Positions 8,645 through 11,560 of a stretch of 33,826 nt of DNA are shown piece after piece. Position numbers and translations under genes: made by a program. Every line of letters starts with the position of its first letter. Positions within the stretch are counted from its first letter, which is position 1. The DNA is taken from positions 1 to 33,826 of the IMG/VR virus record IMGVR_UViG_3300029787_000177; one strand, given 5' to 3'. Below the pieces are notes generated by a model. The model worked only from the letters and a program-made list of their open reading frames with translations. It was not told the origin of the DNA and ran no database searches. The DNA is from a virus.

Positions 8645-8839
8645 ATGACACTTGAAGAATATCGACAGACAAAAGGTTGGTCTTACTCGCATTTAGCCAA
8701 GATGGTTGGCTGCTCTCACGCTACTGTCGCATCTCGATGGTGCAAGGGCGAGATGATACCAAAACCAAAACACATGGAGCAGATTTCTAAATTAACGAAT
8801 GGAGCTGTGAGTCCAAATGACTTCTACAAGCATGACTGA
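8645..8839 (+). CDS. Cro-like small HTH regulator
   Basis: 64 aa, essentially a single helix-turn-helix domain: EEYRQTKGWSYSHLAKMVG (helices 1-2) and SHATVASRWCKGEMIPKPKHM (recognition helix and turn), then a last helix ending in NDFYKH. Size, divergent orientation from the repressor and first place in the right early operon match Cro/YdaS-type regulators. The ribosome site is weak (AAGAG two bases from ATG), compatible with leaderless initiation from the promoter ending at 8639. It should counteract repressor at the shared operators. The 3' end overlaps the next gene by 23 bp. Confidence 0.7.
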   Translation: MTLEEYRQTKGWSYSHLAKMVGCSHATVASRWCKGEMIPKPKHMEQISKLTNGAVSPNDFYKHD

Positions 8840-9233
8840 GGATCAGCTACAGAAACAGGTTGCAGCCTATCTGCACGTTGCCTTGCCGGATGGCTCTATC
8901 TTTCATCACTCGCCAAACGAAGGCACACGCCATGTAAACTTCAAGATGAAGCTGAAGAGCTTTGGTACGCAATCAGGTTGGCCAGACATAGAAATCTTTT
9001 GCCCAGGCACAGCAACCATTTTCATAGAATTAAAAAGAGCCAAGCCCAAAGGTAAGCTGTCGTTTAACCAGGCACTGCTTAGAGATCAGTTTGAAAACCT
9101 TGGCTTGCATTGGGCCATGTGCTGCACACTCGATGAAGTGGTGGATTTCCTAAGCCCTATCGTCAGGCTCAAGGGCGGTACACGCTTCATAAACCTAGCC
9201 AAGAACGACAACACAGGCAGAAGGGTGCGATGA
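8817..9233 (+). CDS. VRR-NUC domain nuclease
   Basis: 138 aa. The VRR-NUC fold is recognised from an N-terminal helix (EDQLQKQVAAYL), H-H-S-P-N-E-G, then G-W-P-D-I (D57), I-F-I-E-L-K (E71, K73) and a downstream helix with conserved Gln (SFNQALLRDQF). These residues form the PD-(D/E)XK active site of the small stand-alone phage type. VRR-NUC proteins act on branched or junction DNA, and small phage versions are thought to resolve recombination or packaging intermediates. The start may be 8817 or the ATG at 8832, both overlapping the Cro-like gene. It overlaps the methyltransferase start by 4 bp. Confidence 0.85.
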   Translation: MTSTSMTEDQLQKQVAAYLHVALPDGSIFHHSPNEGTRHVNFKMKLKSFGTQSGWPDIEIFCPGTATIFIELKRAKPKGKLSFNQALLRDQFENLGLHWAMCCTLDEVVDFLSPIVRLKGGTRFINLAKNDNTGRRVR

Positions 9234-10339
9234 TGGCTCATGTGGATCTCTGCTCTGGTATAGGCGGCTTTGCACTTGGCTTTGAGTGGGCAGGGCTGAG
9301 CAAGCCTGTTCTATTCTGTGACATTGAGCCTTGGTCTAGGAAGATACTTAAAAAGCATTGGCCTGATGTGCTGATATGCGAAGATGTAAAGGAGTTAGCA
9401 GATGACCCAGATCGATATGTTCCCAGACTTGATTGGTCAAACACAATTGTCAGCGGCGGCTACCCATGCCAAGCCTTTTCAGTCGCAGGCAGGCAAAAAG
9501 GCTGGGAAGATCCTAGAGCAATCTGGCCGTGGCTGTTTAAACTTGTTGCACTCAAAAGACCAAAGTTCTGCGTTTTTGAAAATGTTACTGGTCACATTGC
9601 CTTGGGCCTCGATAAGGTCATCCATGATTTGGAAGGTGAAAACTACTCCGTCACAACGCTTATTATTCCAGCTAGTGCAGTCGGTGCGCCCCACAAGCGA
9701 GAGCGGCTCTGGATTATTGCACACTCCAACAGCAACAGCCAATCAGATGTCACCAAGCATGAACAAGAGCGGTTGGTGGCCGACACCGAGAGCAGCAAGC
9801 GGTGGCCCAGGCAAGAACCCAAACAACAAAAGGGGGATGCACCAAGGCAATCCATTAGCAACGGCAGTAGCAATGTGGCCGACACCAACAACACAAGAAA
9901 TAGAGCATCCAAACATGAAACTGAGCAAGACAGGCAGACGGCTGACGAAGGACGGCAAGAACAGCCACAGTCTGAATTTAGCCGACAGCGTAACAATGTG
10001 GCCGACACCGAGAGCAGGGTTGGAAAAGCACTCAACGAAAGATGCTTATTGGAACAATCGCATACAGAAGGGCAGACAAACAGACATTCAGATGGAAGTT
10101 TACAAGCAAGAGCAATCGGGCAGCCTCAACCCAGAATGGGTGACCTGGCTGATGGGCTATCCACGGGGATGGACAGATTTGGAAAGCACGACGGATTTGA
10201 AGTAGAGCCTAGCGATATTCCTAGAGTTGCGTCCGGCATTAAGGACAGAGCCAATAGGCTCAAGGGCTTGGGTAACGCCATTGTGCCAGGTATTGCAATG
10301 CAGATTGGCTTAGCCATTAAGGAGAGCCAATGGAAGTAA
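9230..10339 (+). CDS. DNA cytosine-5 methyltransferase
   Basis: 369 aa. Motif I is DLCSGIGGFALG (6-17, AdoMet binding). Motif IV is G-G-Y-P-C-Q-A-F-S with catalytic C80. Motif VI is E-N-V (117-119), motif VIII is H-K-R-E-R-L-W (155-161), and motif X is G-N-A-I-V-P (348-353). All catalytic elements are present. The region between VIII and X (about 165-335) is polar and low in complexity, with three VADT repeats, where the target-recognition domain should lie. The enzyme would methylate phage DNA, probably for protection from host restriction; no partner endonuclease is seen. A second long ORF is nested in the +1 frame (9402-10205). Confidence 0.9.
   Translation: MMAHVDLCSGIGGFALGFEWAGLSKPVLFCDIEPWSRKILKKHWPDVLICEDVKELADDPDRYVPRLDWSNTIVSGGYPCQAFSVAGRQKGWEDPRAIWPWLFKLVALKRPKFCVFENVTGHIALGLDKVIHDLEGENYSVTTLIIPASAVGAPHKRERLWIIAHSNSNSQSDVTKHEQERLVADTESSKRWPRQEPKQQKGDAPRQSISNGSSNVADTNNTRNRASKHETEQDRQTADEGRQEQPQSEFSRQRNNVADTESRVGKALNERCLLEQSHTEGQTNRHSDGSLQARAIGQPQPRMGDLADGLSTGMDRFGKHDGFEVEPSDIPRVASGIKDRANRLKGLGNAIVPGIAMQIGLAIKESQWK
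9402..10205 (+). CDS. Nested +1-frame ORF inside the methyltransferase gene
   Basis: 267 aa, wholly inside the methyltransferase gene. AAAGGAG (9388-9394) lies exactly seven bases before its ATG. The sequence resembles phage proteins I recall as separate hypothetical or methyltransferase-associated ORFs: MTQIDMFPDLIG start, FQSQAGKKAG, SSMIWKVKTTPSQRLLFQL, several W-P-T-P/T-P-T repeats, and the ending SLNPEWVTWLMGYPRGWTDLE. The TGGCCGACACC repeat encodes WPTP here and VADT in the methyltransferase. Either a real dual-coding gene or a family made of out-of-frame translations; function unknown. The 804-nt open length plus a good ribosome site favour translation. Confidence 0.5.
   Translation: MTQIDMFPDLIGQTQLSAAATHAKPFQSQAGKKAGKILEQSGRGCLNLLHSKDQSSAFLKMLLVTLPWASIRSSMIWKVKTTPSQRLLFQLVQSVRPTSESGSGLLHTPTATANQMSPSMNKSGWWPTPRAASGGPGKNPNNKRGMHQGNPLATAVAMWPTPTTQEIEHPNMKLSKTGRRLTKDGKNSHSLNLADSVTMWPTPRAGLEKHSTKDAYWNNRIQKGRQTDIQMEVYKQEQSGSLNPEWVTWLMGYPRGWTDLESTTDLK
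9777..10017 (+). repeat. In-frame repeat TGGCCGACACC within methyltransferase/nested ORF
   Basis: TGGCCGACACCGAGAGCAG occurs exactly at 9777-9795 and 9999-10017, and the core TGGCCGACACC also at 9876-9886. Spacings of 99 and 123 bases are multiples of three, so both reading frames repeat: VADTES in the methyltransferase and WPTPRA in the nested frame. Repeats this exact over dispersed positions suggest duplication or recombination within the target-recognition region. Confidence 0.8.
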
Positions 10340-10509: not shown

Positions 10510-10739
10510 AAATAAGTATAGCTGAAGAGTTTGCGCTAAAGCCCATAGGTAATGGCGCATATAGAAGTAACAAGATAGATCCACAATCTGTAGCCAAGCA
10601 TTACATCCAGTATCGGATGAGTAATTACTGGACGCTTCTTGATATTGCTACAGCATCAAATTTTGAGCTGCCGTTTGGCAAGACCAAGTGGACAAAAAAG
10701 CTGCTTACAGATGCCTGCGTTGAATGGCTCACCAAATGA
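10506..10739 (+). CDS. Hypothetical early protein (77 aa)
   Basis: 77 aa, unrecognised. Hydrophilic and mixed in character, with a central segment (KIDPQSVAKHYIQYRMSNYWTLLDIATASNF) suggesting two helices, and a Lys/Trp-rich end (KTKWTKKLLTDACVEWL). It could be a small DNA-binding or adaptor protein, but no motif decides. Both ends overlap neighbours (ATGA junctions). GAAGGGATGAAG upstream supplies a ribosome site. Its place between the methyltransferase group and the PP-loop enzyme says only that it is early. Confidence 0.5.
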   Translation: MKISIAEEFALKPIGNGAYRSNKIDPQSVAKHYIQYRMSNYWTLLDIATASNFELPFGKTKWTKKLLTDACVEWLTK

Positions 10740-11560
10740 ACCTAAACGCTCAGTCTAATCCTTACACGTTGCCAGAAGGTAATGTGCTAATAAGTTTTAG
10801 TGGTGGGCGTACAAGCGGCTATATGTTGCATCAGATCCTTGCTGTGAACGGTGATTTACCAAAGCGTTGCAAAGTTGTGTTTGCTAATACAGGGCGTGAA
10901 ATGCCAGAAACGTTAGACTTTGTGCAAGAATGCAGTCAGCGGTGGCAAGTGCCTGTGACTTGGCTAGAATACAGAAAACAAATGCCTAAGTTTGTAACTG
11001 TGAATCATAACTCTGCGAGTCGAAATGGTGAGCCATTTTCTGAGTGTATCGATAGCGTAACAAAATTTAGGTATCTTCCTAATCAAGCGCAAAGATTTTG
11101 TACTCAGCAAATGAAAGTTTTGACTATCAAAAGATATTTAGTAAGCCAAACATGGAAACAATGGACAAACACTATAGGCATTCGTGCAGATGAGGCTCAC
11201 AGAGTAAAACCATCAACAGATAATAGGTGGACAAATTGGTCACCATTAAACGATGCAATCGTGTCGGTGCATGATGTTCAAAGGTTTTGGAAGCAACAAC
11301 CATTTGATTTGAAAGTTACACCAGGATTTGGAAATTGCGATGGTTGTTTTTTAAAATCAGAAGCAACTCTTGCAGCTGTGTGGCGTGAACACCCACATCG
11401 AATGAAGTGGTGGTCTGACATTGAAAATACAGTTGGTTCTAAATTTCATAAAAACAGAACATACAAACAAATAGGCGATTTCGTTAGCCGTCAAGGCGAT
11501 TGGATCTTTGACGATGAAGCATACCTTTGCCAGGCAAATGATGGGGAGTGTACAGGATGA
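10736..11560 (+). CDS. PAPS reductase-like PP-loop protein
   Basis: 274 aa from the ATG overlapping the previous stop (ATGA); an in-frame ATG at 10724 is an alternative. It has the PP-loop S-F-S-G-G-R-T-S-G close to the N-terminus, then F-A-N-T-G-R-E-M-P, and G-I-R-A-D-E in the middle, a motif of the PAPS reductase/DndC family. Cysteines in R-F-C-T, N-C-D-G-C-F and near the C-terminus could bind an iron-sulfur cluster, as in DndC-type enzymes. The ECGLH motif of true PAPS reductases is absent. It probably adenylates a substrate in a sulfur or nucleotide reaction; DNA or tRNA modification is an inference from the nearby methyltransferase. Confidence 0.72.
   Translation: MNLNAQSNPYTLPEGNVLISFSGGRTSGYMLHQILAVNGDLPKRCKVVFANTGREMPETLDFVQECSQRWQVPVTWLEYRKQMPKFVTVNHNSASRNGEPFSECIDSVTKFRYLPNQAQRFCTQQMKVLTIKRYLVSQTWKQWTNTIGIRADEAHRVKPSTDNRWTNWSPLNDAIVSVHDVQRFWKQQPFDLKVTPGFGNCDGCFLKSEATLAAVWREHPHRMKWWSDIENTVGSKFHKNRTYKQIGDFVSRQGDWIFDDEAYLCQANDGECTG

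What the first reader, a model, noticed from the sequence alone, without database searches (positions are those of the whole stretch)
9388..10205. Long gene nested in the +1 frame of the cytosine methyltransferase
An 804-nt ORF lies wholly inside the methyltransferase gene, has AAAGGAG exactly seven bases before its ATG, and reads like a phage protein family I remember as separate ORFs (MFPDLIG start, RLLFQL, WPTP repeats, LNPEW...LMGYPRGWTDLE end). The alternative frames of the catalytic PCQ region and of the VADT repeats give the conserved-looking segments of that family. Either this is a widespread dual-coding (overprinted) gene never recognised as such, or that whole family is a shadow of C5 methyltransferases. 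Both outcomes matter for annotation.
Basis: partly seen in the sequence, partly recalled or inferred. Interest (0 to 1): 0.8.

Follow-up and report, generated by a model that had tools for sequence, protein, structure and literature searches.

The report
Nested subunit of a split methyltransferase
The same stretch of phage DNA is read in two frames to make two proteins of one DNA-methylating enzyme, and the hidden second frame appears to carry the swappable parts that choose which DNA sequences get methylated.

Summary
ORF 9402-10205 is a genuine, conserved gene nested in the +1 frame of a C5-cytosine methyltransferase (alpha, 9230-10339). In 81 loci chosen by alpha sequence alone, the +1 frame is always open over the catalytic region. 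In 66 of 71 loci not cut off it carries the same terminal motif, and three of the other five are variants my pattern missed. Substitutions per alpha codon position flip from third-position (single-coding parts) to first-position (modules and motif IX), as expected if the nested frame is the more constrained one there. The nested protein (beta) has a conserved N-terminus, ~40-residue 'WPTP' modules and a C-terminal LNPxWVEWLMGYP, which is methyltransferase motif IX and is missing from alpha; alpha keeps motifs I-VIII and X. I found no convincing standalone homologue. It is therefore the beta subunit of a split, overlapping C5 methyltransferase, a kind known from M.EcoHK31I; some phage records already annotate it (Shelly: 'g55 internal gene'). 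What seems new is its spread over hundreds of phage and bacterial loci, and evidence that the nested frame holds a swappable cassette array while alpha's VADT/NSNS region is mostly a passenger linker. That beta does the target recognition is inferred, not shown.

The parts
9230..10339 (+). alpha: C5-cytosine methyltransferase large subunit (motifs I-VIII and X, no motif IX)
   Evidence: PF00145 3.8e-36, phrog_363 1.3e-61; M.HhaI match covers only residues 4-168
9402..10205 (+). beta: nested subunit in the +1 frame (N-terminal domain, WPTP modules, motif IX)
   Evidence: phrog_1008 1.4e-23; +1 open in 81/81 alpha-selected loci; substitution pattern
9388..9394 (+). Shine-Dalgarno AAAGGAG for beta, 7 nt before its ATG, inside alpha codons
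   Evidence: sequence; AAGGA(G) in 79/81 loci; Lys codon AAG 73:1
9245..9271 (+). alpha motif I (DLCSGIGGF), SAM site
   Evidence: sequence; aligned to M.HhaI
9455..9481 (+). alpha motif IV (GGYPCQAFS), catalytic Cys, overlapped by beta N-terminus
   Evidence: sequence; aligned to M.HhaI
9575..9586 (+). alpha motif VI (FENV)
   Evidence: sequence
9695..9715 (+). alpha motif VIII (KRERLWI)
   Evidence: sequence
9624..9674 (+). beta conserved hairpin segment (MIWKVKTTPSQRLLFQL)
   Evidence: conserved W77, L91 and others in 80-82 betas; best-predicted part of the beta model
9717..9776 (+). beta module 1 (LHTPTATANQMSPSMNKSGW), short
   Evidence: module parse
9777..9875 (+). beta module 2 (WPTPRAASGGPGKNPNNKRGMHQGNPLATAVAM)
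9876..9998 (+). beta module 3 (WPTPTTQEIEHPNM...SLNLADSVTM); same module in 43 loci at array positions 0-4
   Evidence: single-coded homologue in L131
9999..10124 (+). beta module 4 (WPTPRAGLEKHSTKDAYWNNRIQKGRQTDIQMEVYKQEQSGS)
   Evidence: replaced in closest relatives L009 and L010
10125..10184 (+). beta motif IX (LNPEWVTWLMGYPRGWTDLE)
   Evidence: invariant L242 N243 P244 L250 M251 G252 P254; same segment lies at motif IX in one-piece relative L217, PF00145 2-319/324, opposite M.HhaI LHPRECARVMGYP
9722..10124 (+). alpha-frame passenger linker (HSNSNSQ... VADT repeats): same DNA as beta modules, kept open
   Evidence: 0 stops versus 4.2 expected over 64 loci; alpha-frame changes concentrated at alpha codon position 1
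10206..10339 (+). alpha 3' single-coding end with motif X (GLGNAIVPGIA, 10265-10297)
   Evidence: rates at alpha positions 1/2/3 .073/.052/.513

Best explanation
The locus encodes one C5-cytosine DNA methyltransferase as two proteins from overlapping frames. Alpha (9230-10339) holds the SAM-binding and catalytic core, motifs I-VIII, plus the closing motif X. Beta (9402-10205) starts from its own ribosome site inside alpha, reads the +1 frame, and supplies an N-terminal domain, an array of about four WPTP modules (typically ~40 residues) and motif IX. The two chains assemble into an active enzyme (inferred from architecture and the M.EcoHK31I precedent). Each WPTP module acts as a target-recognition cassette that directs methylation to a particular DNA sequence (inferred). 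Across the modules alpha's own frame is a polar, weakly constrained linker whose main duty is to stay open so ribosomes reach motif X. Likely use: the phage methylates its own DNA at several host restriction sites (inferred). Shown here: dual coding, which frame is constrained where, motif partition, cassette swapping. Inferred: assembly, target choice by beta, biological role.
For: (1) 80 loci picked only by alpha residues 1-165 plus the window: +1 frame open over the catalytic region in 81/81; motif IX in +1 in 66 of 71 not cut at contig ends, and three of the five misses are sequence variants in +1. (2) Substitution rates at alpha codon positions 1/2/3.144/.069/.462 before beta starts.073/.052/.513 after it ends.339/.121/.086 over modules.216/.078/.095 over motif IX.221/.130/.315 over the catalytic part; same with disjoint pairs. 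(3) Alpha frame has 0 stops over modules versus 4.2 expected given beta. (4) Motif partition. (5) Relatives where alpha ends after motif VIII and beta alone carries modules, IX and X: L131, L163, L224, L230, L246; a shared module is 56% identical in the beta frame versus 24% in the alpha frame, which has a stop in L131. (6) Cassettes: 965 modules, median 40 aa, mostly 1-6 per beta, same module at different array positions; window versus L009 is 88% and 86% identical either side of a replaced block, L010 has an inserted module.
Against: No protein-level or methylation data. AlphaFold models of beta alone (pLDDT 60, pTM 0.28) and of the one-piece relative L203 (pLDDT 56, pTM 0.27) are too poor to place the modules against DNA. 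A paper states that in M.EcoHK31I the predicted target domain is in the large subunit. Beta has no recognisable match in Pfam or the PDB.
Confidence: 0.85

Rival explanations
1. Beta supplies only motif IX and structural support, while target recognition lies in alpha's variable VADT/NSNS region, as predicted for M.EcoHK31I.
For: PMC3404938 places the predicted TRD of M.EcoHK31I in the large subunit.
Against: Over that region alpha changes mostly at its first codon positions and least at its third, the opposite of protein constraint in alpha. Staggered relatives lack this part of alpha. The alpha-frame version of a shared module is only 24% identical, with a stop.
Confidence: 0.1
2. Beta is not started separately; ribosomes shift +1 from alpha to make one fused methyltransferase.
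For: Motif order across the two frames is that of one enzyme; one-piece relatives exist (L203, L211-L219).
Against: Conserved ribosome site and start at 7-8 nt spacing with biased Lys codon; the conserved beta N-terminus overlaps alpha motifs IV-VIII and would be lost in a fusion; motif X stays in the alpha frame and is strongly conserved. I did not search for shift-prone sites.
Confidence: 0.05
3. The nested ORF is an untranslated shadow produced by alpha's composition.
For: Polar repeats read in a shifted frame can stay open; the start and ribosome site are favoured by alpha's residues (1,928/5,000 shuffles).
Against: Codon-shuffle odds of 1 in 20,000; reversed substitution pattern; single-coded homologues of the same modules.
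Confidence: 0.02
4. Beta is an independent protein (for example an anti-restriction factor) that merely overprints the methyltransferase.
For: No Pfam or PDB match to beta.
Against: Beta carries the motif IX that alpha lacks; in one-piece relatives that motif sits in the methyltransferase chain; no convincing standalone beta among 289 loci.
Confidence: 0.03

Closest known systems
M.EcoHK31I (and M.EaeI), two-polypeptide C5 methyltransferase (Lee, Kam and Shaw 1995, as described in PMC3404938)
   Same: Large chain with motifs I-VIII and X; small chain with motif IX. From memory, the small chain is encoded inside the large one in an alternate frame; I could not open the original paper. M.EaeI is placed here from memory.
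   Different: Here beta carries an array of exchangeable ~40-residue modules that look like the target-recognition part; the specificity here is unknown; no partner endonuclease was noticed, though none was searched for.
M.AquI, split C5 methyltransferase
   Same: Two chains share one set of motifs (PMC3404938); relatives L131, L163, L224, L230 and L246 have this partition (I-VIII / IX-X).
   Different: In the window motif X is in alpha and beta is fully nested.
Multispecific Bacillus phage methyltransferases (SPR, phi3T type; from memory)
   Same: Several short exchangeable target-recognition units between motifs VIII and IX.
   Different: Those are single-frame, single-chain enzymes; here the units are in the overlapping frame on a second chain, and multispecificity is only inferred.
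phrog_1008 / Paenibacillus phage Shelly gp56 ('g55 internal gene')
   Same: Homologues of the nested protein; the Shelly gene overlaps a methyltransferase gene.
   Different: Labelled 'DNA methyltransferase' or 'internal gene', without assignment as the motif IX and recognition subunit.

Membership tests
C5-cytosine DNA methyltransferase (PF00145) | motifs I-VIII, with catalytic Cys in motif IV and ENV in motif VI | tested here: met
   PF00145 3.8e-36; M.HhaI alignment 4-168
C5-cytosine DNA methyltransferase (PF00145) | motif IX followed by motif X in the same chain (single-chain form) | tested here: not met
   motif X in alpha (10265-10297), motif IX in the +1 frame (10125-10184); one-piece relatives meet it
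M.EcoHK31I-type two-subunit methyltransferase | large chain I-VIII plus X, small chain motif IX | tested here: met
   definition
M.EcoHK31I-type two-subunit methyltransferase | small chain encoded in an overlapping alternate frame of the large chain | tested here: met
   that this defines M.EcoHK31I is from memory, original paper not held
M.EcoHK31I-type two-subunit methyltransferase | target-recognition domain in the large chain (predicted for M.EcoHK31I) | tested here: inconclusive
   constraint and module data point to the small chain instead
M.EcoHK31I-type two-subunit methyltransferase | both polypeptides needed for activity; specificity YGGCCR | not testable with these tools
   needs expression and methylation mapping
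M.EcoHK31I-type two-subunit methyltransferase | cognate restriction endonuclease | not tested
   flanking genes scanned with PHROGs are a nuclease-like gene, PAPS reductase and phage genes; no dedicated endonuclease search was made
M.AquI-type split | small chain carries motifs IX and X | tested here: not met
   window beta stops at 10205, before motif X; met in L131, L163, L224, L230, L246
Multispecific phage C5 methyltransferase | tandem ~40-residue recognition units between motifs VIII and IX | tested here: inconclusive
   tandem ~40-residue exchangeable modules in that position, but on beta; recognition not shown
phrog_1008 | profile match | tested here: met
   1.4e-23; all 82 aligned betas match

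The most novel reading that the evidence does not exclude
Phages keep a large, shared library of DNA-target cassettes written in two overlapping frames. Each ~40-residue recognition unit is encoded in the nested frame, and every exchange must also keep a second, passenger frame open so that the catalytic chain reaches motif X. A split, multispecific methyltransferase is thus retuned by swapping dual-coded cassettes, and frame arrangement (nested, staggered, one-piece) shifts as cassettes recombine.
Probability: 0.6. Interest if true: 0.75.

Novelty: new variant of a known kind. Interest (0 to 1): 0.62.

Why it matters
Long same-strand overlapping genes in bacteria and their phages are usually dismissed by annotation. 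This one is strongly supported by substitution patterns, recurs in hundreds of phage and bacterial loci, and is left out of many annotations: RefSeq lists only alpha in E. coli 40EC (L127), and phage records L002, L003, L004 and L007 list only alpha. If the modules choose the target, the part that sets specificity of many phage methyltransferases is in the frame that annotation discards, so specificity predictions made from alpha alone are unreliable. It also gives a clear case for studying how two frames share constraint, with single-coding controls in the same gene.

Tried and rejected
AlphaFold of beta alone (80-row alignment) and of the one-piece relative L203 (mixed alignment) gave pTM 0.27-0.28, so no fold search was run. 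A profile of beta against PDB sequences found nothing credible; the staggered beta of L163 found nothing. The original M.EcoHK31I paper and Meister 2010 are not held. Paper searches for nested or alternate-frame cytosine methyltransferases gave no relevant hit. The ribosome site was first taken as strong evidence, then downgraded because alpha's residues favour it. A first run of the position test on alpha-chosen loci used too strict a pattern and kept 6 loci; it was corrected. The first position test of all used loci chosen by beta similarity, so it was repeated on alpha-chosen loci. Plasmid hit L128 lacks an intact overlap at its motif IX hit and looks degraded. L010/L290 has an exchange that shifts frames and may be broken or an assembly artefact.

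Full report
OBSERVATION. Permuting alpha's synonymous codons reproduces a +1 stop-free run that long once in 20,000 trials, and never in 5,000 trials with the window's codon usage. The ribosome site alone is not strong evidence, since alpha's own residues favour it (1,928/5,000 shuffles).

WHAT THE OUTER GENE IS. Alpha matches PF00145 and phrog_363. Its match to solved C5 methyltransferases (M.HhaI) covers residues 4-168 only, that is motifs I to VIII. It then runs through a polar stretch with VADT repeats and ends with motif X, GLGNAIVPGIA. A motif IX is not seen in alpha.

WHAT THE NESTED GENE IS. Beta matches phrog_1008, labelled 'DNA methyltransferase', as do all 82 aligned relatives. Its invariant end, LNPxWVEWLMG(Y/F)P, is motif IX: in one-piece relatives such as L217 the same peptide sits just before motif X in the catalytic chain, within a PF00145 match spanning 2-319 of 324, and pairs with M.HhaI LHPRECARVMGYP (that local pairing is weak on its own score). 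So alpha has I-VIII and X and beta has IX. This is the motif partition reported for M.EcoHK31I (PMC3404938).

IS IT UNDER SELECTION. To avoid choosing loci by beta, I fetched 80 relatives by alpha residues 1-165 only and added the window. The +1 frame is open over the catalytic region in all 81, the third frame is mostly closed, motif IX is in +1 in 66 of 71 not cut by contig ends, and AAGGA(G) precedes the beta start in 79. Three of the five misses are variant motifs in +1. Substitution rates at alpha codon positions 1/2/3 are .144/.069/.462 before beta begins and .073/.052/.513 after it ends, the usual single-gene pattern. Over the modules they are .339/.121/.086 and over motif IX .216/.078/.095. 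Alpha's first position is beta's third, so there beta is the more constrained frame. Over the catalytic motifs (.221/.130/.315) both frames are constrained. Disjoint pairs give the same values. Conversely, alpha's frame has no stops over the modules where 4.2 would be expected given beta, and its motif X end is strongly conserved, so alpha really is read through. At the ribosome site the Lys codon is AAG 73:1 against 184:129 upstream (the sequences are related, so this is not 74 independent events).

FRAME ARRANGEMENTS. Of 284 motif IX hits in 289 loci, 230 are nested in +1 of an ORF with the catalytic motif and motif X, and most of the rest are the same arrangement cut by contig ends or missed by a pattern. 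Informative exceptions: in L131, L163, L224, L230 and L246 alpha stops after motif VIII and beta alone carries modules, IX and X (an AquI-like stagger); in L211-L219 and L046, IX and X are in the catalytic frame while the +1 ORF holds only modules; L203 has most modules plus IX and X in the catalytic frame. In the staggered set the modules are single-coded. One module shared by L131 and the window is 56% identical in the beta frame and 24% in the alpha frame, with a stop there in L131.

MODULES. I parsed 965 WPTP-type modules from 315 betas (median 40 aa; mostly 1-6 per beta; 260 clusters at 60% identity); the same module occurs at different places in the array. The parse is by a simple header pattern, so counts are approximate: in the window it also produced a false unit from the hairpin and split module 2, leaving about four real modules. 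Between the window and L009, 88% and 86% identical stretches flank a block that does not align. L010 carries an inserted module. The window's module 3 has relatives in L011 and L041 largely confined to that module. This is cassette exchange.

MECHANISM. Shown: dual coding, constraint by frame, motif partition, cassette exchange. Inferred: alpha and beta assemble; beta's modules choose the target; several modules mean several targets; the phage uses this to escape restriction. The inference rests on position between motifs VIII and IX, size, exchangeability, and the precedent of multispecific phage methyltransferases (from memory). It disagrees with the statement that the M.EcoHK31I target domain is in the large chain, which is worth a direct test.

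NOVELTY. A two-chain C5 methyltransferase with a separate motif IX chain is known, and the nested protein has been annotated in some phages and clustered in PHROGs. Several records omit beta (E. coli 40EC; phage records).

Noticed in passing
L144-L148 (uncultured Roseovarius sp., OX638333.1): Five loci from one chromosome give the same match scores to the nested methyltransferase query, suggesting repeated copies or related prophages.
   Followed up: no
L041:2965-4470 and L048:2-925: Beta contains an unusually long inserted module (~110 aa) with a helix-turn-helix-like stretch (in L041 IKTLSEQTNIKKTTIEHWFRKD) shared, with small differences, by both.
   Followed up: no
L010/L290: A very close relative of the window has a module exchange that is not a multiple of three, so beta's N-terminal frame runs into motif X and motif IX falls in a third frame: broken copy, assembly error or transitional form.
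   Followed up: partly
L175 and L257: Motif IX is in the catalytic alpha frame but motif X in another frame, a further arrangement of the same parts.
   Followed up: partly
window 8817-9233: A nuclease-like gene (phrog_824; weaker endonuclease and Holliday junction resolvase profiles) overlaps the methyltransferase start by 4 nt; a VRR-NUC gene lies two genes upstream of the methyltransferase in Bacteroides phage BKO1-TP3.
   Followed up: no
window 10724-11560: A PAPS reductase-family gene lies downstream of the methyltransferase, as in phages C72C1 and BKO1-TP3.
   Followed up: no
L005 (uncultured phage KT997847): Alpha appears split by a frame change near its start, and the two annotated methyltransferase CDS are both in the beta frame.
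   Followed up: partly
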